DNA of 64,000 bases from Granulicella arctica. Its GTDB lineage: Bacteria; Acidobacteriota; Terriglobia; Terriglobales; Acidobacteriaceae. Below, piece by piece: positions 5,019 to 31,051 of this stretch (its first letter is position 1; each line of letters starts with the position of its first letter). A program made the position numbers and the translations under genes. The stretch lies in contig NZ_JAGTUT010000001.1 in assembly GCF_025685605.1 (NCBI RefSeq), positions 3,286,001 through 3,350,000 of the forward strand. The letters are read 5' to 3'. The notes below the pieces were generated by a model. It was given only the letters and a program-made list of their open reading frames with translations, ran no database searches and had not been told where the DNA came from.

Positions 5019-6392
5019 TTAGTGGTTCTCAACCGGGGTGGCTGATTTCGGTCGCGGAGCAAAGCTACTCCACCGATATGCTTCTGCGTCATTCGGACCA
5101 GGTTTTGCTGTCCACAGATCAGCGCTCATACCATTCAGATCGTAGACAATCTTGCCGTCCTTGATGGTCAACTCGCAAGAGAGCTTATGCTTTCCATGGA
5201 GTCGCTTGTCGATCATGTCCGTGAACCCGAAGTTGCCTGCCTCCAGGCGAAGCACAGCTATATCTGCAATGGAACCTTCTGACAGGTTGCCTAGTTCGTC
5301 ATGGCGAATCTCATGTGCCGGATGGGAGGTCATCTCGGCTACAACCTCCTTGAGCGGGACGCCTATAGCGAGGATTTTGTCAGCTACGTTAAGTTCATCC
5401 TTCATGCCCGAGTTCATGCTAGTGATGTGAAGATCGGTAGAGATGGAATCAGGGATAAAACCCGCTTTGATCATCGGGACGGCTAGGGACCACTTAAAGC
5501 TTCCGCCTCCTTGGCCAACGTCGAAGTAGATGCCGCGCTTCCGACCTTCGATCATGGCCTTGCTTGGGCCAAGAGTGGTGAGGTCCTGCTCCTGGCGAAT
5601 GCCAGAGTACATGTGGGTGTAGATGTCACCGGGGCGAATCTTCTGAGTCATGAGATCATAGATCGGCCGCGTCGGACGATCTACGCCAAAATCCACCATA
5701 ACTGGAATGTTGGCCTTGGTTCCGGCGATAACTGCCTGCTCCACCGGTGTCCATTCGGGACCTGCGAAGTGCGCCGTTTTGATTCCGACGATGGTCTGAG
5801 GGTATTTGAGAGCCATGGCTGCTGTAGCCTCACCATCCATGTCACTCGTGTTGTTTTCGTAGAGCGCTCCGCGCATACCGGAGCCCACAATATTCAGCAT
5901 CGCGAAGACCCGCGTCTTTGACCGGTCGATAATGCGATCTTTGAAGTCTTCAAAGTTACGCCATCCGGAACAGCCCGCATCGACAACGGTTGTGACGCCG
6001 ACACGAAAGGTGAAGCCGTCCGGCGGGACGCTGTTATCGCCCGCGTAGGAGTTGCGCTCGCCTGTGCCGGCGTAGACGTGGACGTGAATATCAATCAGAC
6101 CAGGCGTGACATAAAGCCCTTTTGCATCAATGGTCTTCAAGGCATCGGTCGAAGGAATATGTGCCGCCACCTTGGCGATCTTCCCATCTTTGATAGCCAC
6201 ATCCATCAGCGCATCGATGTGATTCTTATCATCGAGTACGTGACCACCGCGGAGTACAAGATCGTAAGCCGGTGCTGCAGACTGCGCGAAGAGGCCGCTA
6301 GTTGCGAAGAAAAGAAACGCAGCCGAGCCGACGATAATTCTTCGAATTGATGTGCGAGGCTTGGAACTCCTGACTTCGGACTTCTGGGACAT
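5019..6392 (-). CDS. Exported amidohydrolase/deacetylase-family metallohydrolase
   Basis: The 457-residue protein belongs to the amidohydrolase superfamily, close to the dihydroorotase-like amidohydrolase/deacetylase subgroup (EF_0837/AHA_3915 type) that is often encoded beside SelA-like PLP enzymes. Metal ligands are visible: HVH at residues 103-105, a candidate carboxylated lysine K205 in GIKTAHF, H260 in THMYSG and D320/H322 in STDLH. The N-terminus is a signal peptide (IRRIIVGSAAFLFFATSG ending FAQS), which predicts periplasmic location; most relatives are cytosolic. GGAG precedes the ATG. It is the last gene of the five-gene operon, 45 bases after the fused PLP enzyme. Likely role, by inference: removing an N-acyl or amide group before ammonia elimination. 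The substrate is unknown. Confidence 0.85.
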   Translation of the reverse strand: MSQKSEVRSSKPRTSIRRIIVGSAAFLFFATSGLFAQSAAPAYDLVLRGGHVLDDKNHIDALMDVAIKDGKIAKVAAHIPSTDALKTIDAKGLYVTPGLIDIHVHVYAGTGERNSYAGDNSVPPDGFTFRVGVTTVVDAGCSGWRNFEDFKDRIIDRSKTRVFAMLNIVGSGMRGALYENNTSDMDGEATAAMALKYPQTIVGIKTAHFAGPEWTPVEQAVIAGTKANIPVMVDFGVDRPTRPIYDLMTQKIRPGDIYTHMYSGIRQEQDLTTLGPSKAMIEGRKRGIYFDVGQGGGSFKWSLAVPMIKAGFIPDSISTDLHITSMNSGMKDELNVADKILAIGVPLKEVVAEMTSHPAHEIRHDELGNLSEGSIADIAVLRLEAGNFGFTDMIDKRLHGKHKLSCELTIKDGKIVYDLNGMSADLWTAKPGPNDAEAYRWSSFAPRPKSATPVENH

Positions 6393-6437
6393 GTTTCTCC
6401 AATCGGCTAATTCGTTCTATATGCTGTGCATCATCGT

Positions 6438-8051
6438 TTAGGCGCGCGCAGCCTTCCAAGAAGCTTCGCCGTATTCGCCCAAGTGGACGGTCCCGCTCAT
6501 ACTGTTCCCCTGAACGGTGCCGCGGAAGTTCCAAGGGACGGAGTTCCCGCTGACCGCCATGCTGCTGTGCAGTTCGATCTCATTGGCATGGATCGAACCC
6601 TGAAGGGCTGTCTTGTAGAGCTCGCCCTGCTGCACGCCTGTAAGCGTATTTCCTGTTTGATCAAGAGTGAAGTGTTGCTCGCCCATTCCGCGGGAATATT
6701 GGATCGACACTGCCCATGTGCCTTTCACCGTCGCCGGCGTACCCGCGGGCACGAGCGGATTCTCGTACTTGCCAGGCTTAGTCAACCCTTCGTAGATGGC
6801 ATCGGCGATAATGCGTTCTTCGCCCGGGTCCATCATGTAGGGCATGATCGTGAGGGTGCTAGCCATCTTGTCCGGCCGTGTGCCGGTACCGCCGTCGACA
6901 AGGATGCGCGGGGTTCCGGCATCAAGGCGCGCGAACATCTCCGTGCCCGTAATCTTGAGAACGTTAGCGTCCCAGTGAATGCGGAGACGTGGTGAGCGAT
7001 TAGAAAGATCTTCCGGCTGCAGGTATTCAGTGGTGATCGAGGGAACACTCTTCACGCGGGATTCGATGAACTGTAGCCAGGAGAGCCATTCGCGCTGCTC
7101 GGCAGCATGATCACGCTTGTACCACTGGCGAACGGCGGCCAGCAGCCCCATGATCTCTTCCTTGCTGCATTTGTAGGCGCGTCCGTAGTTATGGTGCGGT
7201 GCAGCTTGAAAGTACGCAGCTCGGCAGAGATCCTTCTGGCCGATGAGCATGCCGGAGGATTGTGGCCCGCGCATACATTTACCGCCTGAGTAGCCAACCA
7301 GTGTTGCGCCGTGCTGGATGTGAATGTTGGGGACGAGCGGCTCTTCGGCTGCGGCGTCAACGAAAACGGGGATGCCCTTCTCCTTGGCGATGGCGCAGAT
7401 ACTTGGAATACTCAGCGGACCACTCTCGGCAAGCGGGCTCGACAAGATGTAGATCATTGCGGTTCGTTCTGAGAGCTTACCGCGAAGCTCCTCAGCTGAA
7501 TCGACCTCGACCACTTCGGCTCCAGTCATGCGAACGCCGAAGTCATAAGGGTTTCGGGAGTGCTTCGGTATGATGACCTGATCGCGACCCTTTATGTAGG
7601 GAAGCGCTTGCGACTTCTCCGGATCGGTTCCAGCAATGCATGCAATCGTGGCGAGAGCGATGGCGGCCTCACAGCCGGTCGTGGCGATGCCCCATTCGGC
7701 ACCGGTAAGCTGGCCAAGTTCTTTGCCGACAGCATCCATTAGCTCGTCAAGGTGGACGAAGTAGAAGGACGCGTCGTACATAGCTTGTTTGACCTGGGGC
7801 AGGGAACGCGAGCCGCTGATGATGGTGAACGTACCGTGGCCGTTCACAATCGGCCGAACGCCAATACTCGTAAAGAGATTGTCGGAACTCGTCCCACTAC
7901 GAGCCGGAAGCTTGTGAGTCGCAGCATCGGCTTGCATGAACGCGTTCGCCGCGAGTGGTGATGCAGCACTCGCAGCTCCCAGGGCAGAGATAATTCCGGA
8001 TTGCTTAAGGACTTCGCGCCGTGACCAGCGTGTCGTGCGAAAGAGAGACAT
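6438..8051 (-). CDS. Tat-exported SelA/DgaE-like PLP enzyme with extra C-terminal beta domain
   Basis: This is a fold-type I PLP enzyme of the SelA-like family, which includes D-glucosaminate-6-phosphate ammonia-lyase (DgaE). It has 537 residues, about 110 more than its paralogue at 8641. The Tat signal is WSRREVLK followed by a hydrophobic stretch. The PLP-binding aspartate is D232 (VFVDAAAE) and the Schiff-base lysine K258 (YSGGKCMRGPQ). Residues about 430-537 form an additional domain with glycine-rich beta repeats (GTWAVSIQYSRGMG, GNTLTGVQQGE, HLGEYGEASWKA) like small lipocalin-type domains on secreted acidobacterial enzymes. Tat export fits a protein folded around its cofactor before transport. 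Predicted reaction, by family: alpha,beta-elimination of ammonia from an amino acid or amino-sugar acid. The substrate is unknown. Confidence 0.82.
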   Translation of the reverse strand: MSLFRTTRWSRREVLKQSGIISALGAASAASPLAANAFMQADAATHKLPARSGTSSDNLFTSIGVRPIVNGHGTFTIISGSRSLPQVKQAMYDASFYFVHLDELMDAVGKELGQLTGAEWGIATTGCEAAIALATIACIAGTDPEKSQALPYIKGRDQVIIPKHSRNPYDFGVRMTGAEVVEVDSAEELRGKLSERTAMIYILSSPLAESGPLSIPSICAIAKEKGIPVFVDAAAEEPLVPNIHIQHGATLVGYSGGKCMRGPQSSGMLIGQKDLCRAAYFQAAPHHNYGRAYKCSKEEIMGLLAAVRQWYKRDHAAEQREWLSWLQFIESRVKSVPSITTEYLQPEDLSNRSPRLRIHWDANVLKITGTEMFARLDAGTPRILVDGGTGTRPDKMASTLTIMPYMMDPGEERIIADAIYEGLTKPGKYENPLVPAGTPATVKGTWAVSIQYSRGMGEQHFTLDQTGNTLTGVQQGELYKTALQGSIHANEIELHSSMAVSGNSVPWNFRGTVQGNSMSGTVHLGEYGEASWKAARA

Positions 8052-8106
8052 GGAGATGATGTTTCCTTTCCTTGAATCATGTTGAAGCTACTGCTGATTG
8101 GTCGAT

Positions 8107-8592
8107 CTAGATGTAAGCGATCAGGTCGATCTCTACGAGTGAGTTGCCAGGGATGCCGCCCGCAGGGGCAATCGTGGTACGGACGGGAGGGATACTGCCC
8201 CAGCGACCACCGTAGACGGTATTCATCTTGGCCCAGTCATTGATGTCGTTCAGATACACGTTCACTTTGAGAACCTTCTCCATCGAAGAGCCAGCTCCGA
8301 CGAGTGTCTTTTCTAATTCATCGAGAACATGCTTGGTATGCTCTTCTACCGTGCCTTTGAAATGCGCTCCCACTCCAGCGAGAAACAGCAGATTGCCAAA
8401 CGAAACAGCGCTTGAAAACAAAGGTGCAGCGCCGGGTGCTACATCCGCGTTTGTCTTTACGGGGTACGACTTCTTCTCAAGTTTTCCGGAGGTTTGTGCT
8501 TCTGCTGCTGTGCCCAGCATCATCCCGCCCGTCGCGACTGCGGCGGCCTTGGCTGCATTCTTGAGTAGCCCTCTTCGTGATTGCTTTTCCAT
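8107..8592 (-). CDS. Tat-exported RidA-family enamine/imine deaminase
   Basis: RidA (YjgF/YER057c/UK114) proteins hydrolyse the reactive enamines and imines released by PLP dehydratases. The RidA domain spans residues about 45-161. It keeps the key arginine R138 (PPVRTTIAP) and the IPGNSLVEID ending. Unusually it starts with a Tat signal (SRRGLLKNAAKAAAVATGG ending AEA), so it should act in the periplasm; ordinary RidA is about 130 residues and cytosolic. AGGAAG precedes the ATG. It lies between two exported PLP enzymes with gaps of 48 and 55 bases, which supports a role in clearing their products. Confidence 0.88.
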   Translation of the reverse strand: MEKQSRRGLLKNAAKAAAVATGGMMLGTAAEAQTSGKLEKKSYPVKTNADVAPGAAPLFSSAVSFGNLLFLAGVGAHFKGTVEEHTKHVLDELEKTLVGAGSSMEKVLKVNVYLNDINDWAKMNTVYGGRWGSIPPVRTTIAPAGGIPGNSLVEIDLIAYI

Positions 8593-8640
8593 GACTAACT
8601 TCCTTTCGGCTTTCGAATCTTCGATAGAACGATGAAGTAC

Positions 8641-9921
8641 TCAGGCCTTGGCTCTCGAGAGAGCGGCGTGGAGGTGACGACCGACGATCTCGGCTTCACC
8701 GGGCTGCAGCATCCACGTGCCTACGACGATAGTGTTCTGGTTGGAATGAGTGCCGAGACGGCCAGTCGATCCCGTTGCGGGATTGAGTTCAATCTGCGGA
8801 CGTTGCGTGCGGAGAAGCTCCTGCACAGCCTGTGGCGTGATGCCAACTACAAGCGGATCATACGTAAGAATGAGGTGGGGAACACGGTTGGCGATCTCGG
8901 GCATAAAGATATCCGTTTGCATCGTTGGGATGTCTTTGACGAATTTGGCGATGATGTCCGCACGGCGCATGTACTCGGCCTGATTAGCCTCGTCGCTCTG
9001 CTCAAGCAGCCAATCGACGGCGGCGACCATGCCAACGATCTGCTCTTTCGCAACCTTCATACCACGACCAACTGCATCGGAGTTGGGGTTGTTGTTGGTG
9101 ACAGCAAGATCTGTAAGGTGTTTCTTGCCGAGCAGGAGACCAGCGTTTTGTGGGCCGCGGATGCCTTTCCCACCTGAAAAGCAGACGAGATCGTAACCCA
9201 TGCCGGTGTACTTCCAGAGGTTCTCAATCGGGGGCATATCAGCAGCGGCATCCATGTGGCAGGGGACATTATGCTGGTGAGCGACATCGAGCCACGTTTG
9301 ACGATCGATCTCGCCATGCTCCGCAGAGTTGAAGAAATTTGTCATGATCGTCTTCGATGTGAATGCGCTTCTATAGTCATCGATTGTAACGACCTCTACG
9401 ATCTTCACGCCACAAAGCAACATGGCGTGATCATACTCATATCGGTGAGCCTTCTGGACGATGACTTCGTTCTTTATCGTGCCTACATTCTCTGGGATTT
9501 GCTCCGGCGTGACTCCGTTTGCGGACATAATACAAGCTGCAGTGGCGAGGGTCAGCGCGGCGGATGCGCCTGATGTGACGACAGCTCCCTCGCAGCGGAG
9601 ACGTTTTGCGAGGTACTCGCCAGAGGCCCGTTGTAAGTCCTTGAGAAAAACGGGATGAAGCGCGGCATGTGCCACAGCACGCTGCACCTGCGGAGGCATG
9701 ACGGCGGCTGTGAGATAGGTGTACGTTCCAGCAGCATTAATGATGGTTTCGATACCAAGCTTTGCGTAGTAGTCATCCGCTGACGGAACTGTCTTCGGCC
9801 CCGCGGAAGCAAAGCTTTCAGCAGCCACAAGAGGAGAGATGGCGATCGATGCGAGCGCTACTTGTGATCCTGTAAGGAACTTGCGTCGAGACAGCTTGCT
9901 TGAATCAGTTCCAGAGACCAT
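8641..9921 (-). CDS. Tat-exported SelA/DgaE-like PLP enzyme
   Basis: The second SelA-like PLP enzyme of the operon has 426 residues. The Tat motif LSRRKFLTG is followed by a hydrophobic core ending near residue 38. D224 (CHMDAAAD) and lysine K252 (FSGGKGIRGPQ) are the predicted cofactor residues, and TSGASAAL near residue 117 is the phosphate-binding turn. It lacks the C-terminal beta domain of its paralogue at 6438. Family knowledge points to ammonia-lyase or related elimination chemistry as in DgaE, not selenocysteine synthesis, because no sel genes or tRNA-Sec are near. Two divergent copies in one operon may act on different stereoisomers or form a heteromer; that is inference. Confidence 0.83.
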   Translation of the reverse strand: MVSGTDSSKLSRRKFLTGSQVALASIAISPLVAAESFASAGPKTVPSADDYYAKLGIETIINAAGTYTYLTAAVMPPQVQRAVAHAALHPVFLKDLQRASGEYLAKRLRCEGAVVTSGASAALTLATAACIMSANGVTPEQIPENVGTIKNEVIVQKAHRYEYDHAMLLCGVKIVEVVTIDDYRSAFTSKTIMTNFFNSAEHGEIDRQTWLDVAHQHNVPCHMDAAADMPPIENLWKYTGMGYDLVCFSGGKGIRGPQNAGLLLGKKHLTDLAVTNNNPNSDAVGRGMKVAKEQIVGMVAAVDWLLEQSDEANQAEYMRRADIIAKFVKDIPTMQTDIFMPEIANRVPHLILTYDPLVVGITPQAVQELLRTQRPQIELNPATGSTGRLGTHSNQNTIVVGTWMLQPGEAEIVGRHLHAALSRAKA

Positions 9922-9968
9922 GACTAACCTCGTGCTGTAGATTCGCGAAGCAATAAGAAGATCATTCG

Positions 9969-10751
9969 CTAGATTCTGCCAAATTGCTTGACCGCTTCAG
10001 TAATCGAATGGAATTTCTCGATGAAGGGGTACATCGAATGTTCGCTGTTGTCGAGTTTCTGCGCCAGAAGGAGGACATCCGCTGCGTGTTCTCGAGGAAC
10101 AACGACAACACCATCTTGATCGGCAACAATAATGTCGTTTGCTGAAACAGCAACGCCATCGCACTGGATCGGAATGTTCACGCCGCCGAAGCGGTAGTGC
10201 CCTACTGATGTGGAGGGCACTGGGCCCGTCGCATAGACAGGAAAGCCGATTCGTTTGAGCTGCGGGAGATCGCGTACTCCGCCATCGATGACTGCACCTG
10301 CGAAGCCGCGCGAGAACATCGCCGTCCCCATCAGGCCCCCCATCCCGGCGATGTCGGCGCCATCCTCCACCTGCATCACATAGACCGACCCTGCACCGCC
10401 CGAGTCGATAGCCTTGAGCATGCCGGTGAGGGCATCAGGATCGTGGTTTTCCTGCTTGATAAGCTTCACCGTCAGCGCCGTCCCGGCAAACTTGGTAGGA
10501 AAGATAGACTGCATGCGATGTGACATGTAGTGCTTCTGATGAAATAGCTGCTCGAGAGCATCGGAGACAGACGCAGCCTCAACATGACGATACGCCTCAA
10601 GCATGGCAGCTGGGTCCGCGTTGTAGTCGGCGGCCGTCTTCTGCGCGTCAGCGTGCAGGATGCGGGGCAATGCGAGCGAAGCCGCACCGAGCAGCACTGC
10701 GGTGATAAAGACTAGAACTCGTCGGTTTGATGGTCGATAGGTAACGTTCAC
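9969..10751 (-). CDS. Exported RraA-like / HMG-aldolase-family protein
   Basis: RraA-like proteins include the class II aldolases for 4-hydroxy-4-methyl-2-oxoglutarate and oxaloacetate decarboxylases. The protein has 260 residues. The catalytic segment IDGGVRD (R160, D161), the ATGPVPSTSVG loop and the DQDGVVVVPRE strand are present, so the metal-dependent 2-oxo acid lyase chemistry looks intact. Unlike most family members it has an N-terminal signal segment (NRRVLVFITAVLLGAASLAL). The start is GTG, chosen because GGAAGG lies 5-6 bases upstream. It is the first gene of the five-gene operon and would cleave or decarboxylate a 2-oxo acid made by the downstream PLP enzymes. That pathway order is inference. 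Confidence 0.83.
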   Translation of the reverse strand: MNVTYRPSNRRVLVFITAVLLGAASLALPRILHADAQKTAADYNADPAAMLEAYRHVEAASVSDALEQLFHQKHYMSHRMQSIFPTKFAGTALTVKLIKQENHDPDALTGMLKAIDSGGAGSVYVMQVEDGADIAGMGGLMGTAMFSRGFAGAVIDGGVRDLPQLKRIGFPVYATGPVPSTSVGHYRFGGVNIPIQCDGVAVSANDIIVADQDGVVVVPREHAADVLLLAQKLDNSEHSMYPFIEKFHSITEAVKQFGRI

Positions 10752-10883: not shown

Positions 10884-13800
10884 CTAGAAGATAAACTTTC
10901 CAGCAAGTTGAATTGCGCGGGATCCGCTAAGTTCGCCAGGAATCGTCTGCACAGTAGTGACAGTTCCAAAATTTGCAGGGCTCAGTGCGGTGCCGCTTTG
11001 TGATGCTGCGCTGAGCGTTGCGTTCGGATTGCCTGCGCTCGGATGATTGAAGACGTTCTGGGCCTCCGCACGGAACTGAATCTTCATCTGCTCACGGATT
11101 GCAAAGTTTTTGAAGAGCGAAAGGTTGTCATACGAAAAACCAGGTCCATGAAGAGTGTTTCGCGAAGAGTTTCCGTATGCATAGTTATAGGCGACGGTAG
11201 CACCGGCAGCGTTCAAAGTCTGAGGAGCGACCGGGAGCGTGTACGCGCTGATATCGATGCAAGAACCGACGTTGCCGTTGATGTAGGTCTTCACGCTGCA
11301 ATGGGAGCTCGGTGTATGAACGAAGTTCGGACGCTCGGTGCCTTGATCGAGGCCAGCGCTGTTATAGCCCAAAGAGACGTTGAAGGGCATGCCGCTCTGG
11401 AGGTTGACGATATCGTTGAGTTGCCATCCCCCAAGTGCCTCGCGAACGGCAAACGTAGAGTTTGCAAACTTCGGCAATTCGTAGGTGACAACGCCAACAA
11501 AGCGATTCCGAATGTCCCAGTTCGCGTTGCCATAGTCAGCACGGATGTTGTAGGGCTGCGACAAAACGCCGCCGCCGTTCGAGTCCGAGCCAATATCAAG
11601 GTCATGCGACCAGGTATAGCTTGCCTGACCGGAAATCCCGTGAAAGAGCCGCTGGCGGAAGATCGTCGTCAGCCCATTGTAGTGAGCATACGCAATATTA
11701 TCGAGGTCGCGAATGGAACCGAAGAGCTGATTCGGACGGAGCGAATTGAGAGTCGGTTTAGCTGCATACGATGCAACCGTGTTTGCTGAGGGATTGGCGG
11801 GAAGATTGGTGTAATTACTGATGTCGAGGTGCAGGGAATGAGAACCCAAATATTGGAGTTCAAACGCTGCACCCTTCCACAATTCTTGTCCAACGCTGAC
11901 GTTCCATTGATAGCTGCGCTGCGTCTTGTTAGCTGGATCGTATTGAACCGCGCTCTGATAGGTGCCGGGCGTTCCAGCGACCGGAGAAGCACTTCCAGCA
12001 CCCGGTGTTGGATTGGACAGTGACAGCAGATTGGCCGAAGTAGTGCTGTACCCGATAAAAGCACCGAGAGGATAGTTGCTGCTGAGCAGCGTAAAGCTGT
12101 TCAGTTGGTTGGCGTTGTAGTAAAAACCGACGCCGCCACGAAGCACGGTCTTGTCTGTCACGCGATATGCTAGGCCCAATCGCGGACCGAAGTTGTCATG
12201 AGTCGGACTTGCCAACTTGAAGCCGGGTGTGGGGGTGAACGTGTTTGCCGTCAGTGCAGTCGTTGCCGGAATAAGTGCCGTCTCTGCGGGGTTCAATAAG
12301 CGGGCGTATCCATTGAGACTGTACGGAACGGTGGGTAGGTCGTACCGCAGACCGTAGTTGATGGTCAGCTTTTGCGTAGCCTGCCAGTTATCCAGAACGA
12401 AGAAGCCATCGCGCCACTCACCGACAGATCCCTTCACGGTGGCAACAGGCGTCTGGTCACTCGCTGCAAGGCCCAAAGCGAAATCCGCGCGGCTGTCACC
12501 CGTAAGCGTGCCATTGAAGGTGAACAGGCCGAGCGACTCATTGGTGGCCGCGCGTCCGAGCGTCAACTTGCGCAGCTCAAGCCCGGCCATAATGTTGTGC
12601 TTACCCCGCGTGTAGCTGACCTGGTCGTACCCGTCGACGGTGCGGTCATCTTGAAACCAGTTCGTGCCATTGTTCCCGATGTTCATACCGGCTGCGCTGC
12701 TCAGCTGAACGTTCGGAACTCCGAGATTACCGGTCGTGGTATCGAAGTTGAAGCCTGGGATGCCGAGTGACGTGCCAGCGCCTTTGAGATTGTTGACGTA
12801 CCAGTAGTTCAGCGAATCGGTCATCAATGTATTGATTCCGAAATGGAAGTCATTCACGAGCCGCTGTGTGATGACATGCGAGTAGCCGAAAGCCAGGTTG
12901 CGGCTGTTCGCCGGACCATAGCCTCCTGCAACAGGTACCTGATTTCCGTTTGCGTAAGTAAGATTCTGCCAATGATAGCGAGCAAAAACGCGAACTTTTT
13001 CACCAATGTTCTCGTCAATGCGATCGAGTGATTGAGCGATGAACAGTGTATTCGGGAAGTAGACATTGTTAAGGTTGTTGCTGATACCAGCGGCGTTCGG
13101 AAGAGGAATGTAAGCCTCATACTTCTTGGCGATCTGCGCAGCAGAAGTAGACAACTCGTTCGATGGAATCTGGTTGTTCACGTAGGCCGCGCCAGTGTAG
13201 GGATCCTTGAGGCAAATGCCTGAACAAACGCCTGCCGCATTCACAGATCCGAGTGCAGAGAAGTCTCCTGCCTCCTGAGCCGCCGTCATCACGGTCGAGG
13301 TGCCCGCAGTTTGCGCCTTCTGATTGAGCTTCTCGTAAGACCCGAAGAAGAAGGTCTTGTCCTTACCGTTGTAAAGCTTAGGGATATATACCGGACCACC
13401 TAAAGTGAAGCCGTATTGGTTGTAGTTTAGAGGAGCTTTCTTCTGTGTCGGTGAGTCGAGAAAGTTATGGGCATCCAGAGCCGTATTCTTGATGTAGTCA
13501 TACGCAACACCGTGGAAGTCGTTTGTACCGACCTTACTCACCATGTTGATATGGACGCCCAGATAGGCACCGTACTGTGCAGGATAGTTACCACTCTGCA
13601 TCTGCACTTCGGAGATCATGTCGGTGCCCGGACGTGCTGGCGTGACATTGCCGAGGTTGTTCATGATCGAGACGCCATCGAGAGTAAGATCGTTCTGAGT
13701 TTCACGCTGACCCGCACCAATAAAGTCGACCCCAGGAGGATTGCCGCTATAGCTTGTCTTCGAACCAATAGTGACGTTCGAAGCAAGTGCCGCAACCTCC

Positions 13801-14258
13801 AGAGCATTGTGCCCCTGAACCGGCAGGTCTTCGACCTGCTTTGTCTCAAAGGTCTCACCCAGGCGCGCGTCGTCCGTCGAGAGTGGCGGAGTGCTGGCCG
13901 ATACGGTCACCACCTCAGACGCCGATCCTATCTTCAAACTGAAGTCTGTTCTTACGGCAACGTCGATCGAGACCGGCACGCCGACGGTGACTTCTTTCTT
14001 GAAGCCCGTCTTTTCTATGCTGATGTCATAAACACCGCTCTTGATGAAGGAGATGGCGTAGTAGCCGGAGCCATTCGTGGTCGCCGCATACTTTACCTGG
14101 GTTGCCACTTCAGTCGCCGTGACTTGGGCTCCAGCAACGGAGCCTCCACTCGCATCGAAAACTGTCCCGACGAGCGAGGTGTTGTTGGCGATCTGGGCCG
14201 AGGCACCCGTGATACACAGGATGCACAGCAGAAAGAGACGCAGAATAGTTCGGTTCAA
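10884..14258 (-). CDS. Oar-like TonB-dependent receptor of the catabolic locus
   Basis: An outer-membrane receptor of 1124 residues. I place the start at a TTG at 14258, because GGAGG lies 7 bases upstream and the protein then begins with a clean Sec signal (NRTILRLFLLCILCITGASA). An in-frame ATG 39 bases upstream would put a polar stretch before the signal and has no ribosome-binding site. Residues about 25-110 are a carboxypeptidase-regulatory-like domain (SLVGTVFDASGGSVAGAQV). The plug (LPVQGHNALEVAAL, LTLDGVSIMNN) and barrel follow, ending IQLAGKFIF with a terminal phenylalanine. The gap to the upstream regulator (14259-14515) probably holds its promoter; I see no clear operator there. 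It likely imports the substrate of the downstream exported enzymes. Confidence 0.9.
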   Translation of the reverse strand: MNRTILRLFLLCILCITGASAQIANNTSLVGTVFDASGGSVAGAQVTATEVATQVKYAATTNGSGYYAISFIKSGVYDISIEKTGFKKEVTVGVPVSIDVAVRTDFSLKIGSASEVVTVSASTPPLSTDDARLGETFETKQVEDLPVQGHNALEVAALASNVTIGSKTSYSGNPPGVDFIGAGQRETQNDLTLDGVSIMNNLGNVTPARPGTDMISEVQMQSGNYPAQYGAYLGVHINMVSKVGTNDFHGVAYDYIKNTALDAHNFLDSPTQKKAPLNYNQYGFTLGGPVYIPKLYNGKDKTFFFGSYEKLNQKAQTAGTSTVMTAAQEAGDFSALGSVNAAGVCSGICLKDPYTGAAYVNNQIPSNELSTSAAQIAKKYEAYIPLPNAAGISNNLNNVYFPNTLFIAQSLDRIDENIGEKVRVFARYHWQNLTYANGNQVPVAGGYGPANSRNLAFGYSHVITQRLVNDFHFGINTLMTDSLNYWYVNNLKGAGTSLGIPGFNFDTTTGNLGVPNVQLSSAAGMNIGNNGTNWFQDDRTVDGYDQVSYTRGKHNIMAGLELRKLTLGRAATNESLGLFTFNGTLTGDSRADFALGLAASDQTPVATVKGSVGEWRDGFFVLDNWQATQKLTINYGLRYDLPTVPYSLNGYARLLNPAETALIPATTALTANTFTPTPGFKLASPTHDNFGPRLGLAYRVTDKTVLRGGVGFYYNANQLNSFTLLSSNYPLGAFIGYSTTSANLLSLSNPTPGAGSASPVAGTPGTYQSAVQYDPANKTQRSYQWNVSVGQELWKGAAFELQYLGSHSLHLDISNYTNLPANPSANTVASYAAKPTLNSLRPNQLFGSIRDLDNIAYAHYNGLTTIFRQRLFHGISGQASYTWSHDLDIGSDSNGGGVLSQPYNIRADYGNANWDIRNRFVGVVTYELPKFANSTFAVREALGGWQLNDIVNLQSGMPFNVSLGYNSAGLDQGTERPNFVHTPSSHCSVKTYINGNVGSCIDISAYTLPVAPQTLNAAGATVAYNYAYGNSSRNTLHGPGFSYDNLSLFKNFAIREQMKIQFRAEAQNVFNHPSAGNPNATLSAASQSGTALSPANFGTVTTVQTIPGELSGSRAIQLAGKFIF

Positions 14259-14515
14259 GGCACAACCTCCAGAGACGTTCTTGCACAGACTTGACACATG
14301 GCCCCGGCGCAGCCTGATCGTGGGTACAGCATTGCAGATACCAAAGGGCGGACCGCAAATGCAGCGACTCGAATAGCAGACTGAGGATTAATGAAGATTT
14401 GACTATGAGGTCACCTTGCTGTCATCAGGCTGTTGACGTGGCTCCGCCTAGGCCAAATGACCTATTCAGGATCTTGCTAAGTTATGCCTGAACTACGCGA
14501 AGACTGAAATGGAAG

Positions 14516-15139
14516 TTACTCCAGGTGAACAAGACCGCGCTGGAAGGCGTAGATCGTCGCCTGTGTGCGATCGCGAGCGCCCATCTTATCGAGGACCGAA
14601 CTGACATGAATGCGCACGGTCTTCTCAGCGATATGAAGTTCTTCGCCGATCTCACGATTGCTGAGCCCGCGCGTAATACAGGCGAGCACCTCTGTTTCGC
14701 GCGGTGTCAGTTCTATCGCCGGGGTGCGCTCTGCGAGTCGATCAAGAGCATGATGCGGGAGGTAGCGTAAACCTCGATCTACGTTCTGGATAGCATTCAG
14801 GAGTTCTTCGCCGCTTGCATCTTTCGTCAAGTAGGCCATGGCTCCATTCCGAACAGCGCGATAAATGTCCTCGCTCCCTTGGTAGTTGGACAGGATGACA
14901 ATACGAGCAGTCGGAAACTCCTTGCGAATTTGGATGATAACTTCGAAGCCGCTGACACGCGGAAGCCGTAGATCAAGCACGACGACGTCGGGCCGGAGCG
15001 AACGAAACATGACAATTCCAGATTCACCATCACTGGCTTCGCCCACGATCTCGATCTGCGCGTGGCCGGCAAGTACAGAGTGCAGCGCCATGCGCGCGAG
15101 GAAGTGATCTTCGATCAGCAGCACACGAATCTGTTTCAT
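14516..15139 (-). CDS. NarL/FixJ-type response regulator
   Basis: The receiver domain (residues about 4-120) has the acidic pair in LLIEDH, the phospho-acceptor D56 in VVVLDLRLP and the conserved lysine in YLTKDAS. A LuxR-type helix-turn-helix follows (LTPRETEVLACITRGLSNRE). The start is placed at the ATG that overlaps the sensor-kinase stop as ATGA; another ATG 12 bases upstream is possible. This overlap indicates translational coupling with the kinase. Its position directly upstream of the TonB receptor makes that receptor, and perhaps the operon behind it, the most likely target. Confidence 0.93.
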   Translation of the reverse strand: MKQIRVLLIEDHFLARMALHSVLAGHAQIEIVGEASDGESGIVMFRSLRPDVVVLDLRLPRVSGFEVIIQIRKEFPTARIVILSNYQGSEDIYRAVRNGAMAYLTKDASGEELLNAIQNVDRGLRYLPHHALDRLAERTPAIELTPRETEVLACITRGLSNREIGEELHIAEKTVRIHVSSVLDKMGARDRTQATIYAFQRGLVHLE

Positions 15140-18100
15140 ATGCCGATCCATCGTATGACGTTATGCTCTTGTTGCAGCGGCTGTCTCATGGCACTGAAGG
15201 ATACCTTGACAGTGACCTCTGTGCCGGCTTCGGCGGATGTCTGTAGTCTGAATGTCCCGCCGAGCTTGCGGGCTCGTTCCTCCATCACTGGTATGCCAAA
15301 ATGGCCGCTTCGTGAAGGGTTGGGTTCGGAGTCCTGAAATCCTCGCCCATTATCGTGAATGGAAAGGCTCAGTGCGTCCAAGTCATATTTGAGAAGGATG
15401 AAAATGTGCGATGGACTGGCGTGGTGAACCGCATTTGAAACGGCCTCTTGACCAATACAGACGAGGTGGTGAACGCATCCGGGAGCAAGCGGTAGTTCGT
15501 CCCCTTCGACCTTGAAGGTCGTTTCAATGCCTTGTTGGAGTGAGTCGGCTGCAAGCGCCCGCCCGAGTGCCTGCGAAAGGATGTCCGTCACCTCGTCCGT
15601 GCCGCGAAGATCCCAGATGATGCGACGCGCTTCGGCCTGGCAATGCGAGACCATGCTGCGAGCAAGTTCGCAGGACTGAGCGGCAGGAGTCGCACTGGAA
15701 TCGGTATCTCGGAAGAGCTTGGCTGTTGCCTCAAGTTGCCACGAGATCGCGGCGAAGCCTGCCATCAAAGTGTCGTGGCATTCCCGAGCGATACGATTTC
15801 GCTCCTCAACAACGATGCCAAGCCGTCCTTTGAGTAATTCGATTCGATGACGGAGAAGCTGAAGTATGACAAACGCCGCAAGTAAGCAGAGCGTGAGATA
15901 AAAATACCAGGTCTGGTAGAAGAAGGGCCGTTGCCTTACAGCAATCGAAGCAATAGGCGAGGTCCATTCTTCGCCGCTGGCACGTGCTTGCACTTCAAAG
16001 GAGTAGTTTCCCGGCGTAAGACGACGATAGCGCGCAGTATGAGAATGAGTTGTGGTCCATTCACTATCGTAGCCAGTAAGTCGATAACGATATTCTATCC
16101 GGGCCGGATTCGTAAGTTGCTTGGCGTTGAAGAGGAAGAAGGCGTCTGGCTGACCAGCTTCAAGGTCAATACGAAAACTTCCACTCGCAGCGATGTTCTG
16201 CGTGGTGTCAGGATCACTTGAGAGGCTCCATCCTGTGATCGTCGCAACAGGGCTTATGGCACCGAGTTTCTCAGCCGCGTCCGTGGTGTGCACAAAGCCC
16301 TTGGTCGTAGCAAACCAGAGGGTTCCATCCGGCAGAATAGTGGAGGATGGCTGCGAAGGACCGCCGCATTCACTGGAGCGCATGCCGTCGGTCTTGCCGA
16401 GAATCACAGCCGAAAGCTGCGTGCGCTTCTTGTCAACCACTGCGTGAAGTTCTGCAACGGATAGTCGGACAATGCCGCGAAACGTACCCAGCCAGAGATG
16501 GCCGTCTTTGTCTTCGGTGATGGTGTTGACTGCCGCCGTAGGAGCGTTCGAGTCGGCTGAAAGTGCAATAAAGTGATCTTCACGGACTGCAGCGAGACCG
16601 CCGCTCCGGATGCCTGCCCACACGTATCCGCTACTGTCGAGAGCGAGCGACAGAATATGAGGATGATCAAGTCCTTGAATGGCCGTTACAACATCACCGC
16701 GAATACGATAAAGACCGTTTGTTGTGCCGATCACAAGCGATCCATCTTTATCTTGAACCATGCAGGTAATCAGTTGCGACTCAAGAAATAACGCGCGGTG
16801 CTGTGAATCCGGTTCGCCTCGTGGAAAGTAAAAAAGTCCGGTGTAACTGCCTACCCAGAGTCCTCCCCGCTCATCCACGAGAATCGAACTAACAGCATTG
16901 CCGGGTGACTCATTGCCCAACAAATAATGATGGTAGCTACGACCATCGAAACGGTAGATGCCATCGAACCACGTTCCAATCCAAATCTGCTGTTTGCGGT
17001 CTTCGGCGATCGCACGGATGGGTGTGCTCGGGGGCATTCCAGGAGGAGTGACGGAAAGAAGCTTCTCACCGTGCCTGCGGAAAAGACCTTGGCCCCAAGT
17101 GCCGAGCCACAGGTCTCCATGGCTGTCCGTGAATGCTGTCGCAGCATAGGTTGCCTTGAATCCCTCTGGCTCGCCGAAGGGTGCAAGTGCACCTTTGTGC
17201 CACCGGCTGAGGCCGCCCGTGAGCATACCGATCCAGAGGTTCTGCTCATCATCGATGAAGAGGGTACGAATCGAGTCATCTGGCAACCCGTCATGAGAAC
17301 CCCAATGAGAGAGGCCGTCGGCGGCAAGTCGCCAGATACCATCATGGCGAGTCCCAATCCAAAGACTTCCTGCGGCGTCGCCAAGCAGCACGGTGATCGG
17401 ATTACCCACGGTGGCACGCACGACCGGATCGTACTGCAACGCACTACCGCAAGAGACGCACTTATGAGGCACAAGCTCCACAAGACGTGCCATGGTGCCG
17501 ACCCAGATTCGTTTCCTCGCGTCACGATAAACGGCGACGGCAGTCTCATGAACACTCCGGCCTAAGGAGAAGCGCTGAGCAATGCCATCTTGCCAATGGT
17601 AAAGACCCAGGGACGTAACGAAGAACATTCCCCCCCGCCCATCTTCTGCGAACGGAGTGGTGATGTCACCTGAGATCATCCCAGTACCGGCTATCAACTC
17701 GGGACGACCATTCACGATGCGTTCCACACCATTCTGGGTGGCGACCCAGACTACGCCCGCAGCATCGAGGTGAAACATCCGGATTCGTTCACTATGATGA
17801 CCGTACTGCTCGCTCACCTGCACCACGCCGTTGTTGGTAGCGTGAAGCACTCCGCGACCATCCGTGCCGATCCAAAGATCACTGGTGCTGAGTGGGAGAA
17901 CGGCATTCACAGCCTCGTTGTCAACAAGACCTGCGAGATCAATGGGAGCGTTTTTAAAACGCTGACCGTCGAAGGTCGACAGCCCGGAAGAAGTCGCAAG
18001 CAGAAGTAAGCCATCGGCTCTCTGCGTGATCATGCGGACGTAGTTATCGGGAAGCCCGTCCTCGACCTGCCATTCCTGCTTCTGATATTCGGAAAGTCTC

Positions 18101-18258
18101 AGCAATGATGAGGGTTGGGCGTGCGCCGTCCGGCAGAACAAGGGCAGAACAGTCATAAGCAGCCAAAATGCTTTAGAAGACGATGACCTGGAAGGGCACG
18201 CCTGTTCCCAGATGCGGCAGCCGCGCTGCAGTCCGACGGAATGGATTCGCCTGGTCAA
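15136..18258 (-). CDS. Beta-propeller/Y_Y_Y sensor histidine kinase
   Basis: A 1040-residue membrane sensor. After a signal/anchor segment (AFWLLMTVLPLFCR) come two periplasmic seven-blade-type propellers made of repeated DLWIGT, GLWVGS and HLWLGT motifs. A Y_Y_Y domain follows (YRYRLTGYDSEW), then one membrane helix near residues 785-803. The cytoplasmic part has a HisKA_3 domain with H828 (RECHDTLMAG) and an HATPase domain (QEAVSNAVHH, DNGRGF, FGIPVMEERA). The start is a TTG without a good ribosome-binding site and is uncertain. Sensors of this build commonly detect oligosaccharides in the periplasm. A CVSCG pair in the first propeller is unusual. It is coupled to the response regulator by a 4-base overlap. 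Confidence 0.9.
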   Translation of the reverse strand: MTRRIHSVGLQRGCRIWEQACPSRSSSSKAFWLLMTVLPLFCRTAHAQPSSLLRLSEYQKQEWQVEDGLPDNYVRMITQRADGLLLLATSSGLSTFDGQRFKNAPIDLAGLVDNEAVNAVLPLSTSDLWIGTDGRGVLHATNNGVVQVSEQYGHHSERIRMFHLDAAGVVWVATQNGVERIVNGRPELIAGTGMISGDITTPFAEDGRGGMFFVTSLGLYHWQDGIAQRFSLGRSVHETAVAVYRDARKRIWVGTMARLVELVPHKCVSCGSALQYDPVVRATVGNPITVLLGDAAGSLWIGTRHDGIWRLAADGLSHWGSHDGLPDDSIRTLFIDDEQNLWIGMLTGGLSRWHKGALAPFGEPEGFKATYAATAFTDSHGDLWLGTWGQGLFRRHGEKLLSVTPPGMPPSTPIRAIAEDRKQQIWIGTWFDGIYRFDGRSYHHYLLGNESPGNAVSSILVDERGGLWVGSYTGLFYFPRGEPDSQHRALFLESQLITCMVQDKDGSLVIGTTNGLYRIRGDVVTAIQGLDHPHILSLALDSSGYVWAGIRSGGLAAVREDHFIALSADSNAPTAAVNTITEDKDGHLWLGTFRGIVRLSVAELHAVVDKKRTQLSAVILGKTDGMRSSECGGPSQPSSTILPDGTLWFATTKGFVHTTDAAEKLGAISPVATITGWSLSSDPDTTQNIAASGSFRIDLEAGQPDAFFLFNAKQLTNPARIEYRYRLTGYDSEWTTTHSHTARYRRLTPGNYSFEVQARASGEEWTSPIASIAVRQRPFFYQTWYFYLTLCLLAAFVILQLLRHRIELLKGRLGIVVEERNRIARECHDTLMAGFAAISWQLEATAKLFRDTDSSATPAAQSCELARSMVSHCQAEARRIIWDLRGTDEVTDILSQALGRALAADSLQQGIETTFKVEGDELPLAPGCVHHLVCIGQEAVSNAVHHASPSHIFILLKYDLDALSLSIHDNGRGFQDSEPNPSRSGHFGIPVMEERARKLGGTFRLQTSAEAGTEVTVKVSFSAMRQPLQQEHNVIRWIGI

Positions 18259-18330: not shown

Positions 18331-19623
18331 TCAGACGTCGAGCGGGCGCTCCGGGTGGACAGTCATCCAGCAGATACCGCCTACAACAGCGAGGATCGCC
18401 GCGATCGCGAAGGATGTCGTCCAGCCGAATCTCTGCGCGATCCATGGAGTAAGGGACGCAGTGACTGCGCCGCCCACTTGACCTCCCATATTGACGAGGC
18501 TCGAGAACACACCGGAGCTGCGACCAGCAATGTCAACCGACACTGACCAGAAGGAACTCTGCGACAGATAGAGTGCTCCCGCACCACCGGCAAGTATGAC
18601 GCCCGCGAGTTGAGGACTGTGTACCTTCGAGCCAAGCACCAGAAAAATAGCCGTGCAAAAGAGTGCTGCAGAGGCTAGACCACACCGTCCTATCCGTAAT
18701 CCATGGGTGCGCGTCAGTCGATCGCTGAGCGCTCCGCCGACAAGGCAGCAGACGGTCATAGAGAGAAAGGGCAGCATGGCATACCGGGCACTCGACTTGA
18801 GATCAAAGCCACGCACCTGTGCCATATAGAGAAAGAACCAGCTAAAGAAAATCCACGCAACATAGCCGAAGCTGAAGTAGCCAGCCATCAACGCTGGAAG
18901 GTCACGCCGCCGAAAGATAGCCCGCCAGGAGATGACCACCGGCTCAGAGGTTCGAAGCTGCTTCGTCGCGAGATCACCCGTGAGACCCGCCCGGATCTCG
19001 CTCAACTCCAGTGGCCCAACGTCAAAGTGCTCCTCTGGGGTATCCCGGGCGAAATGCCACCAGACGCCCCCGGCGATCACCCCGACGAGCGCGCTGAACC
19101 AGAAAGCCGCTCGCCAGCCATGGTTTGTGATGAGCCAGGTGAGAAGAGGAGGGGTCAGGCCACTTCCCGCCCCAACACCTGCGAAGATGAGACCGTTGAT
19201 GAAACCCCGTTCCTGTACCGGAATCCAGCGCGCAACAAACTGGTTCGCGGCAGGGTAAATGACCGCCTCTCCGGCACCGAGAGCGAAGCGAATCGCAATC
19301 AGCAGCATCACGGCGTGCGAGATGCCGGAGGGGAGCAGTGCTGTGAGAGCCGTGGCTACACCCCACCAGAGAACGCCTAAAGCCAAGACGAGACGGGGGC
19401 CATAACGGGCGGCCAGCCAACCGGCTGGAAGTTGAAATCCGGCATAGCCAATTAGAAACGCACTGAAAATCCATCCGAGCCGCTGGTTCCCTAAGCCATA
19501 CTCCGTACTGATCTGCAGGCCCGCGATAGAAATGTTGGTGCGGTCGAGGAACGCTACACCACTAAGCACAAACAGCCAGAACGCAAGGAAGAACCTGACG
19601 CGGGTACGACGTTCGAAGTACAT
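18331..19623 (-). CDS. MFS transporter of the anion:cation symporter (hexuronate/sugar-acid) family
   Basis: A 12-helix MFS permease of 430 residues, resembling ExuT/GudP-type symporters for sugar acids. The signature FLDRTNISIAG in helix 1, the loop GWLAARYGPR and the symmetric GALSDRLTR loop before helix 8 are visible. The start is set at the ATG at 19623, because GGAGGA precedes it by 7-8 bases; an in-frame ATG 24 bases upstream lacks this. It lies 72 bases upstream of the sensor kinase and in the same orientation. In the context of an oxidase, lactonase and PLP ammonia-lyases, uptake of a sugar acid or 2-oxo-3-deoxy acid is plausible but not shown. Confidence 0.88.
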   Translation of the reverse strand: MYFERRTRVRFFLAFWLFVLSGVAFLDRTNISIAGLQISTEYGLGNQRLGWIFSAFLIGYAGFQLPAGWLAARYGPRLVLALGVLWWGVATALTALLPSGISHAVMLLIAIRFALGAGEAVIYPAANQFVARWIPVQERGFINGLIFAGVGAGSGLTPPLLTWLITNHGWRAAFWFSALVGVIAGGVWWHFARDTPEEHFDVGPLELSEIRAGLTGDLATKQLRTSEPVVISWRAIFRRRDLPALMAGYFSFGYVAWIFFSWFFLYMAQVRGFDLKSSARYAMLPFLSMTVCCLVGGALSDRLTRTHGLRIGRCGLASAALFCTAIFLVLGSKVHSPQLAGVILAGGAGALYLSQSSFWSVSVDIAGRSSGVFSSLVNMGGQVGGAVTASLTPWIAQRFGWTTSFAIAAILAVVGGICWMTVHPERPLDV

Positions 19624-19761
19624 CGGGAACTCCTCCAGCCAGGACATAACCTATGCTGGAGAACTCCAACAGTGAATCTCGGTGAATGTCCGGACGATCT
19701 ATTGAACTACGAAGGAGTGACTTGCCGGTAGGGCGTATGGCCTAGATCACCAGGAGAGATT

Positions 19762-31024: not shown

Positions 31025-31051
31025 GGTGATGGGTGGAGACAAAGGCGGTGG

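What the first reader, a model, noticed from the sequence alone, without database searches (positions are those of the whole stretch)
5019..10751. An apparently complete PLP-based degradation route moved outside the cytoplasm
Five adjacent genes encode RraA-like, two SelA/DgaE-like PLP enzymes, RidA and an amidohydrolase, and every one has an export signal (Tat for the three PLP/RidA proteins). Seen directly: signals, catalytic lysines, RidA arginine, metal ligands and 43-55-base spacing. Known: DgaE eliminates ammonia from D-glucosaminate-6-phosphate, RidA hydrolyses the resulting enamine/imine, and RraA-type proteins cleave or decarboxylate 2-oxo acids. Inference: deacylation, ammonia elimination, imine hydrolysis and aldol cleavage run in the periplasm on an unphosphorylated substrate. 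I know of no characterised periplasmic system of this composition.
Basis: partly seen in the sequence, partly recalled or inferred. Interest (0 to 1): 0.85.

Follow-up and report, generated by a model that had tools for sequence, protein, structure and literature searches.

The report
Exported oxidative breakdown of amino sugars
A soil acidobacterium appears to take apart N-acetylated amino sugars outside its cytoplasm with a set of exported enzymes, two of them vitamin-B6-dependent, a job for which the known route runs inside the cell; the pathway is read from genes and has not been tested in the laboratory.

Summary
The five genes are real and their export signals genuine: the twin-arginine motif recurs in both PLP enzymes and RidA in related genomes, including other families of Acidobacteriota, where exported PLPB keeps company with RidA and/or the deacylase in 12 of 17 loci. 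Of 150 family genomes 16 have the oxidase, 15 PLPB and 13 both, often as neighbours; a lactonase usually follows the oxidase, mostly with a Tat signal. This points to a phosphorylation-free route from N-acetylhexosamine through lactone, N-acetylhexosaminate, hexosaminate and enamine/imine to 2-keto-3-deoxyhexonate. Both PLP enzymes lack the His-162/His-163 pair of DgaE, whose H163A mutant releases the enamine; that would explain an exported RidA. Not shown: any activity, the aldol step, the site of the oxidase (no signal of its own), or elimination rather than Cap15-like oxidative decarboxylation. The chemistry parallels the cytoplasmic ong pathway; compartment and enzyme set are new as far as searched.

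The parts
9969..10751 (-). Exported RraA-like protein (260 aa, GTG start), proposed aldolase on the 2-oxo acid; Sec-type signal or anchor
   Evidence: PF03737 129 bits; hydrophobic N-terminus kept in relatives; Arg-Asp pair invariant in 9 of 9
8641..9921 (-). PLPA: exported SelA/DgaE-like PLP enzyme (426 aa), Tat motif SRRKFL
   Evidence: TIGR01437 149.5 bits, below cut-off; Tat motif in 13 of 13 close relatives; AlphaFold model pLDDT 86.6, nearest folds Cap15 and DGL
8107..8592 (-). Exported RidA (161 aa), Tat motif SRRGLL
   Evidence: PF01042 73 bits; 12 of 12 Tat motifs; Arg invariant in 8 of 8
6438..8051 (-). PLPB: exported SelA/DgaE-like PLP enzyme (537 aa), Tat motif SRREVL, with a C-terminal eight-stranded beta-barrel domain
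   Evidence: TIGR01437 144.4 bits, below cut-off; model pLDDT 81.7; VIA Z 31.9 to Cap15, 30.6 to DGL
5019..6392 (-). Exported deacetylase-type amidohydrolase (457 aa), Sec-type signal
   Evidence: PRK09237 403 bits, above cut-off 371; PDB relatives 2ogj, 8wzy, 8je0, 2ics
10884..14297 (-). TonB-dependent receptor, outer-membrane uptake
   Evidence: PF25183 672 bits; related receptor in 6 of 13 core loci
14516..15151 (-). LuxR-type response regulator
   Evidence: PF00072, PF00196; in 7 of 13 core loci by clustering, 9 of 13 by direct comparison
15136..18258 (-). Reg_prop/Y_Y_Y sensor histidine kinase
   Evidence: PF07494, PF07495, PF07730; in 9 of 13 core loci by clustering, 11 of 13 by direct comparison
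18331..19647 (-). MFS carrier of the organic-anion type, proposed importer of the product
   Evidence: PF07690 208 bits; best NCBIfam TIGR00893 D-galactonate transporter, 210 bits, below cut-off 395; in 11 of 13 core loci
21520..22578 (-). Exported protein of unknown family next to the oxidase/lactonase pair (role not established)
   Evidence: No Pfam match at 0.001, none that fits at 10; relatives above 300 bits in 10 of 80 oxidase loci
22538..23365 (-). PF10282-type lactonase with Tat motif TRRTFV (start taken at the second Met of the ORF 22538-23422); shortened copy
   Evidence: PF10282 47.7 bits; covers residues 1-267 of a 421-aa relative; coupled to the oxidase gene in relatives
23400..24953 (-). 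Relative of N-acetyl-D-hexosamine oxidase (517 aa), no signal peptide
   Evidence: 593 bits over residues 4-516 to PDB 7zzk; Cys125 invariant and His64 in at least 90% of 11 (their role as flavin links is recalled)

Best explanation
An exported, phosphorylation-free catabolic module for N-acetylhexosamines (GlcNAc/GalNAc) of an Edaphobacter-like acidobacterium. The TonB receptor brings the sugar or an oligomer into the periplasm. The flavin oxidase oxidises C1 to the lactone, and the lactonase (or spontaneous hydrolysis) opens it to the N-acetylhexosaminate. The exported amidohydrolase removes acetate. PLPA and/or PLPB eliminate the 3-hydroxyl from the 2-amino-3-hydroxy acid; lacking the His pair of DgaE they release the enamine/imine, which exported RidA hydrolyses to ammonia and 2-keto-3-deoxyhexonate. 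That acid is cleaved by the RraA-like protein to pyruvate and glyceraldehyde, or taken up whole; the organic-anion MFS carrier imports the product. Shown by sequence: families, catalytic residues, export signals, gene order, conservation, co-occurrence. Inferred: every substrate, the order of steps, the aldol step, and the periplasmic location of the oxidase (perhaps carried out by the Tat signal of its translationally coupled lactonase).
For: Export signals conserved in close relatives and in other Acidobacteriota families (17 of 17 PLPB, 9 of 10 RidA printed, by eye). All five genes in 8 of 13 core loci, three of the other five cut by a contig end; kinase, regulator, MFS and receptor recur. 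Oxidase: 593 bits to 7zzk; the characterised enzyme oxidises C1 of GlcNAc/GalNAc and its biological role is called unclear (PMC9299179, passages). Oxidase and PLPB co-occur: 13 both, 2 PLPB only, 3 oxidase only, 132 neither of 150 family genomes (Fisher 3e-14); in the own genus 11, 1, 0 and 9 of 21 (Fisher 3e-5). Same contig in 12 of the 13, within 17 kb in 9 of those 12. Lactonase follows the oxidase in 57 of 80 loci, median 18 bases apart in the 49 where a Tat start could be placed. DgaE His-162/163 absent in 58 of 58, PLP Lys present in 58 of 58; DgaE H163A releases the enamine (PMC9529869, parts 1 and 2 of 3 of the text). The ong pathway does like chemistry in the cytoplasm and its RidA gene is needed for growth on N-acetylglucosaminate (PMC9537276, passages). 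Own genome has no TIGR00502 NagB match.
Against: The oxidase has no signal (3 of 94 with an RR motif against 26 of 27 lactonases), so oxidation may be cytoplasmic, which would not fit exported later steps. Outside the own family PLPB occurs without the oxidase (15 genomes), with RidA and/or the amidohydrolase in 12 of 17 loci and without either in 5. In 21 Burkholderiales loci the oxidase/lactonase pair has none of the five genes nearby. In three genomes with both, oxidase and PLPB are 56 to 576 kb apart. The window's lactonase is short. PLP enzymes score far below the DgaE cut-offs, and Cap15 is as close in fold as DgaE. OngC made ammonia and KDG without the RidA protein in vitro, and the role of that RidA was left open (PMC9537276, passages). 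RraA activity is untested. NagB of the SIS-domain type was not searched.
Confidence: 0.55

Rival explanations
1. The exported core (PLPB, RidA, amidohydrolase) degrades other N-acyl-D-beta-hydroxy amino acids, for example from peptides or cell walls; the HexNAc oxidase is only a frequent neighbour in a sugar-utilisation region.
For: PLPB occurs without the oxidase in other families and in G245 of the own genus; the oxidase/lactonase pair occurs without the core in 21 of 21 Burkholderiales loci. A cog3964 relative is recalled to act weakly on N-acetyl-D-serine (recalled; not found in the library).
Against: Co-occurrence inside family and genus is strong; oxidase directly beside PLPB (L057-L059), RidA (L056) or the amidohydrolase gene (L064, L077).
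Confidence: 0.25
2. PLPA/PLPB are O2- and PLP-dependent monooxygenase-decarboxylases like Cap15, turning the 2-amino acid into a carboxamide with loss of CO2, not ammonia lyases.
For: Cap15 (8t7j) ranks first by fold for both models, DGL close behind; DgaE His-162/163 missing. Cap15 works on glycyluridine (PMC6411801, passages), which is recalled to be a 2-amino-3-hydroxy acid.
Against: An amide product gives no clear use for RidA or RraA; Cap15 and DGL are near-ties in Z (31.9 against 30.6); the NCBIfam model that both match best is the DgaE family.
Confidence: 0.12
3. The signals are mispredicted and the proteins work in the cytoplasm.
For: No localisation data; one start is GTG; the NCBIfam Tat models are not passed.
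Against: Twin-arginine motifs conserved across genera and families against near-zero in neighbouring cytoplasmic or membrane families; TatC present.
Confidence: 0.03

Closest known systems
ong cluster, oxidative chitin catabolism of Pseudoalteromonas prydzensis (PMC9537276)
   Same: Deacetylase and deaminase act on unphosphorylated N-acetylglucosaminate to give 2-keto-3-deoxygluconate; a RidA gene is needed for growth on it (role left open); TonB receptors feed it
   Different: There OngB and OngC are predicted cytoplasmic and annotated as D-aminoacylase and D-amino-acid deaminase, KDG is phosphorylated by KdgK, regulation is by a repressor (OngR); here SelA/DgaE-type PLP enzymes, cog3964-type deacylase and RidA are exported, a HexNAc oxidase is linked, and a sensor kinase lies in the cluster
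[quoted passage not shown] PMC9529869)
   Same: Fold, PLP lysine, about 25% identity, likely beta-elimination of a 2-amino-3-hydroxy acid
   Different: Phosphorylated substrate, keeps His-162/His-163; both lost in PLPA and PLPB, Arg-301 mostly His in PLPA
N-acetyl-D-hexosamine oxidase of Ralstonia solanacearum (7zzk; PMC9299179)
   Same: 593 bits over almost the full length of the window oxidase
   Different: Its paper knew no pathway for it in that organism; here it is tied by neighbourhood and co-occurrence to a catabolic module
Predicted GlcNAc route of chitinotrophic Natrarchaeobius (PMC12343721, passages)
   Same: A DgaE homologue, a glucose dehydrogenase and a RutC-family (RidA-type) gene in chitinase clusters; oxidation to D-glucosaminate proposed
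   Different: Prediction only; deacetylation comes first, a kinase makes the 6-phosphate, export of these enzymes is not mentioned in the passages seen
Cap15, PLP- and O2-dependent monooxygenase-decarboxylase (8t7j)
   Same: Closest solved fold to both PLP enzymes
   Different: Antibiotic biosynthesis (recalled), not known to be exported (recalled), gives an amide
PvdN, periplasmic PLP enzyme (named in PMC6411801)
   Same: Shows that a PLP enzyme can work in the periplasm
   Different: A single pyoverdine-modifying enzyme, not a catabolic pathway
cog3964 amidohydrolases of PDB 2ics and 2ogj (EF_0837 and Atu3266 by recall)
   Same: Closest solved relatives of the window amidohydrolase; the E. 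faecalis gene is recalled to lie beside a DgaE-like gene
   Different: The window protein and its relatives have Sec-type signals; the solved ones are cytoplasmic as far as recalled

Membership tests
[quoted passage not shown]
   149.5/144.4 and 120.9/134.3 bits for PLPA/PLPB
[quoted passage not shown] the paper writes Lys-217) | tested here: met
   Lys in 58 of 58
[quoted passage not shown]
   His at neither column in 58 of 58 (the loop is gapped)
[quoted passage not shown]
   Arg-301 column: His in 21 of 22 PLPA, Arg in 7 of 19 PLPB, else variable; 332 and 346 lie beyond the printed alignment
Cap15-type PLP oxygenase | Oxygen-dependent decarboxylation to an amide | not testable with these tools
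   Fold similarity only
Tat substrates | Twin-arginine motif before a hydrophobic stretch, kept in orthologs | tested here: met
Tat substrates | Score above the NCBIfam Tat model TIGR01409 | tested here: not met
   RidA 15.1 against 16.7; not listed for PLPA or PLPB
RidA | Ribonuc_L-PSP domain with the catalytic Arg | tested here: met
   PF01042 73 bits; Arg in PPVRTT invariant in 8 of 8
RraA/HMG-CHA aldolase family | RraA-like domain with the Arg-Asp pair | tested here: met
   PF03737 129 bits; aligned with 3noj; invariant in 9 of 9. The role of the pair is recalled
RraA/HMG-CHA aldolase family | Aldolase activity on 4-hydroxy-2-oxo acids | not testable with these tools
   All ten NCBIfam matches are below their cut-offs
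cog3964/PRK09237 amidohydrolase | Score above the PRK09237 cut-off | tested here: met
   403 against 371 bits
N-acetyl-D-hexosamine oxidase | Full-length similarity to the characterised enzyme, with the two flavin-linking residues | tested here: met
   593 bits; Cys125 invariant, His64 in at least 90% of 11
N-acetyl-D-hexosamine oxidase | Oxidation of GlcNAc/GalNAc | not testable with these tools
   No assay
ong-type oxidative GlcNAc pathway | GH20, D-aminoacylase OngB, deaminase OngC, RidA and KdgK in one cluster | tested here: inconclusive
   Window genes scanned so far share only RidA and the overall chemistry; OngB, OngC, GH20 and KdgK were not searched for in the genome

The most novel reading that the evidence does not exclude
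A whole catabolic sequence for N-acetylhexosamines (oxidation, lactone opening, deacetylation, PLP-dependent ammonia elimination, enamine/imine hydrolysis, possibly aldol cleavage) runs in the periplasm without kinase, ATP or sugar phosphate. Holo-PLP enzymes and a dedicated RidA are exported folded by Tat, and the signal-less flavin oxidase is exported as a passenger of its Tat-signalled lactonase. It would give a physiological role to N-acetyl-D-hexosamine oxidase.
Probability: 0.4. Interest if true: 0.88.

Novelty: new variant of a known kind. Interest (0 to 1): 0.77.

Why it matters
Intermediary metabolism with PLP enzymes and reactive enamines is taken to belong to the cytoplasm. An exported RidA paired with exported PLP lyases would show that bacteria can move such chemistry, together with its damage control, across the membrane. 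It would suggest a function for an enzyme whose published biological role is unclear (N-acetyl-D-hexosamine oxidase), explain how Acidobacteriota, abundant in soil, may use chitin, glycan or cell-wall amino sugars without the usual kinase and deaminase, and raise a concrete question on Tat passengers (signal-less oxidase beside a Tat lactonase).

Tried and rejected
Filing PLPA/PLPB as DgaE: rejected on score and on the missing His pair. Filing them as Cap15: kept as a rival; fold ranking cannot decide. Calling the module Ong-type: not filed so; kept as the closest chemistry. Looking for the same module around the Burkholderiales oxidase: 0 of 21 loci hold any of the five genes at E up to 1e-6, and seven proteins from three of those loci, one of them the lactonase, gave nothing that links them (the eighth protein of that call is the lactonase of Acidobacteriota locus L057). 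The unknown exported protein at 21520-22578: I wondered about a mutarotase, but neither the window copy nor 10 relatives matched such a family at E up to 10, HMMER's filters permitting. Fold of the PLPB C-terminal domain: only the whole model was searched, and that part was barely tested; no Pfam name (best 0.19). A recalled G-x20-R-D-x2-E/D motif for RraA proteins was dropped, since the aligned part of the solved aldolase 3noj does not fit it either. Literature searches for a periplasmic or HexNAc-oxidase pathway (listings, of which I opened only the papers named in this report) showed no such system in the open-licence library; lists were cut at 8 to 20 rows, and most subscription journals are not held.

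Full report
What is there. The window lies at 3286001-3350000 of contig 1 of a 5.85-Mb genome. By inference it is an Edaphobacter-like acidobacterium: a genome listed as same genus (G466) has a contig of 711,311 bases, the length of an Edaphobacter lichenicola M8US30 record. All five ORFs of the finding are present on the minus strand, in the order RraA-like, PLPA, RidA, PLPB, amidohydrolase, with gaps of 47, 48, 55 and 45 bases. PLPA and PLPB match the DgaE-family model TIGR01437 at 149.5 and 144.4 bits, far under its cut-off of 385.3; the only Pfam cut-off that either passes is PF01053 for PLPB (27.9 against 27). The amidohydrolase passes PRK09237 (403 against 371 bits); its solved relatives are deposited as dihydroorotase, amidase or adenine deaminase. 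PLPB has an extra C-terminal domain of eight strands in the model.

Are the signals real? No predictor was on hand, and the NCBIfam Tat models are at best reached below their cut-offs. The case is conservation. In the 13 loci with the closest PLPA relatives (of the 42 read; window included), the twin-arginine sequence is in every PLPA (13 of 13), RidA (12 of 12) and PLPB (11 of 11) N-terminus printed, and RraA and the amidohydrolase have hydrophobic Sec-type N-termini (read by eye). A few rows are partial: the RraA of L057 is split over two ORFs and the amidohydrolase of L059 is cut by the locus end. In other families of the phylum PLPB relatives of 43-50% identity keep the motif (17 of 17), as do 9 of the 10 RidA neighbours printed (by eye). 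A mechanical count over all loci gave 57 of 65 PLPA, 46 of 57 PLPB, 27 of 30 RidA and 26 of 27 lactonases with RRx[hydrophobic] near the start, against 3 of 94 oxidases, 0 of 39 MFS, 1 of 25 kinases, 1 of 24 regulators, 6 of 82 receptors, 5 of 46 amidohydrolases, 5 of 39 RraA and 219 of 1355 unlabelled ORFs. Starts were chosen by rule, only matches above 100 bits were counted, and the pool holds some genomes twice because two collections overlap. TatC is in the own genome. I take export as settled short of an experiment; for RraA an uncleaved anchor is possible.

The unit is larger than five genes. All five are in 8 of the 13 core loci; of the other five, L055, L057 and L063 reach a contig end, L058 lacks the amidohydrolase and L061 lacks PLPB. 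By clustering, a related MFS carrier recurs in 11, the sensor kinase in 9, the regulator in 7 and a related TonB receptor in 6 (direct comparison finds kinase in 11 and regulator in 9). The carrier's best NCBIfam model is the D-galactonate transporter TIGR00893, below its cut-off. An FAD oxidase and a PF10282 lactonase-type protein recurred in 7 of the 13 each (the window's own pair lies beyond the end of its 20-kb locus and is not in that count). The oxidase matches PDB 7zzk, N-acetyl-D-hexosamine oxidase, with 593 bits over residues 4-516. The paper on that enzyme (PMC9299179, passages) reports C1 oxidation with highest affinity for GlcNAc and GalNAc, says that its biological function is unclear, and notes homologues in Acidobacteriales and Burkholderiales.

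Test of the link. In 150 genomes of the family, strong matches (E below 1e-140) to the oxidase are in 16 and to PLPB in 15; 13 have both, 2 PLPB only, 3 oxidase only, 132 neither (Fisher p 3e-14; genomes are related, so this p is not that of independent trials). In 21 genomes of the own genus (matches at E below 1e-30): 11 both, 1 PLPB only, 0 oxidase only, 9 neither (p 3e-5). Of the 13 with both, 12 have them on one contig, 9 of these within 17 kb and three 56-576 kb apart. In L057, L058 and L059 the oxidase gene directly follows PLPB; in L056 it lies beside RidA, in L064 and L077 beside the amidohydrolase gene. A scan of GTDB genomes with the oxidase alignment kept the best 80 of 395 loci, 21 of them Burkholderiales and 59 taken as Acidobacteriota (split by record title, one of which says only 'bacterium'). 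The lactonase follows in 37 of 59 and 20 of 21; two or more of the five genes lie nearby in 17 of 59 and 0 of 21. Where a Tat start could be placed (49 loci) the oxidase-lactonase distance has a median of 18 bases.

Against this: in 15 genomes of other families PLPB (E below 1e-120) occurs without an oxidase match at 1e-30. In the 17 loci fetched from them, PLPB lies with RidA and the amidohydrolase in 6, with one of the two in 6, and without either in 5, some of these on short contigs. So PLPB, RidA and amidohydrolase look like the older exported core, and the oxidase, PLPA and RraA an extension in the own family; that order is inference.

Mechanism. In a DgaE H163A mutant, which lacks the proton donor, turnover goes on (kcat 20 against 27 per second) but a free enamine is released (PMC9529869, parts 1 and 2 of 3 of the text). 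Aligning DGL with 22 PLPA-type, 19 PLPB-type and 17 distant PLPB sequences, I find the PLP lysine in 58 of 58 and a histidine at neither of the two positions in 58 of 58 (the loop is gapped, so columns are approximate there). Arg-301 of the phosphate cluster is His in 21 of 22 PLPA and variable in PLPB. So the enzymes are not DgaE and are unlikely to need a phosphate, but would be expected to release an enamine, which fits a RidA made for the same compartment. This is inference from a mutant of a relative, not an observation on these enzymes; and OngC, the deaminase of the ong pathway, made ammonia and KDG in vitro without its RidA. The rival is Cap15, first by fold for both models with DGL close behind; Cap15 needs O2 and gives an amide (PMC6411801, passages).

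Pathway proposed: HexNAc to lactone (oxidase), to N-acetylhexosaminate (lactonase, or spontaneously; the window's lactonase is short, covering residues 1-267 of a 421-aa relative), to hexosaminate and acetate (amidohydrolase), to enamine/imine (PLPA/PLPB), to 2-keto-3-deoxyhexonate and ammonia (RidA), to pyruvate and glyceraldehyde (RraA, weakest step) or uptake whole (MFS). The own genome holds a PF01081 KDPG-type aldolase and no TIGR00502 NagB match (the same search rings in 8 of 14 control genomes). My rough weights: export 0.95; deacylation plus elimination with RidA 0.7; HexNAc-derived substrate 0.65; RraA as aldolase here 0.35. PLPA and PLPB can each be missing from a locus: G039 (L061) has PLPA without PLPB, G245 (L191) PLPB without PLPA, and G245 shows no oxidase match either, so they may be alternatives rather than partners.

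Comparison. The closest described pathway, ong of Pseudoalteromonas (PMC9537276, passages), has a deacetylase, a deaminase and a RidA gene needed for growth, acting on unphosphorylated N-acetylglucosaminate; OngB and OngC are predicted cytoplasmic and are other enzymes. A predicted archaeal route (PMC12343721, passages) pairs a DgaE homologue with glucose dehydrogenase and a RutC-family gene in chitinase clusters, through a phosphate. PvdN is called a periplasmic PLP enzyme (PMC6411801, passages), so the compartment alone is not unheard of for PLP. What I found no report of is an exported set of deacylase, SelA/DgaE-type lyases and RidA, or a pathway for N-acetyl-D-hexosamine oxidase (searches; open-licence library only). 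I rate it a new variant of a known kind: known chemistry, new enzymes for it, new compartment.

Noticed in passing
L044, L046, L047, L048: A second exported-type cluster in the family: a PLPA paralog of about 40-43% identity with an RraA-like gene and an MFS gene, in three of the four also a RidA-like gene (the hit in L048 is weak and overlaps RraA), but no PLPB or amidohydrolase match; perhaps the same logic for another sugar acid.
   Followed up: no
window 6441-6776 and one search hits to residues 434-537: The C-terminal beta-barrel domain of PLPB matches short ORFs in a number of family genomes (most open frames about 130-250 aa), so it may be a mobile exported domain; no Pfam name.
   Followed up: partly
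window 21520-22578: Exported protein without a Pfam family that recurs near the oxidase/lactonase pair (relatives above 300 bits in 10 of 80 oxidase loci).
   Followed up: partly
window 23400-24953 and loci L094-L173: Signal-less oxidase gene coupled (median 18 bases in 49 loci) to a Tat-signalled lactonase in both Acidobacteriota and Burkholderiales: candidate for passenger export through Tat.
   Followed up: partly
L093 (G137:C562): One oxidase relative has a Tat-like N-terminus of its own in the same frame (MISRRSFLLS...), a lone clear exception that would fit export of the oxidase.
   Followed up: no
window 22538-23422: Lactonase copy is short; the relative in L094 is also only a 270-aa ORF, while L095 has 421 aa: possible decay in one branch.
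   Followed up: partly
window 19762-21459 and 29789-31042: Alpha-L-fucosidase (PF01120) and GH88-type hydrolase (PF07470) genes lie in the region, hinting at fucosylated or plant glycans as the source.
   Followed up: no
own genome G000: No match to NagB (TIGR00502) in a genome rated 100% complete.
   Followed up: partly
G101:C5:3806841-3808157: Oxidase relative with one in-frame stop, in a locus that also holds PLPB, RidA and amidohydrolase genes (L090).
   Followed up: no
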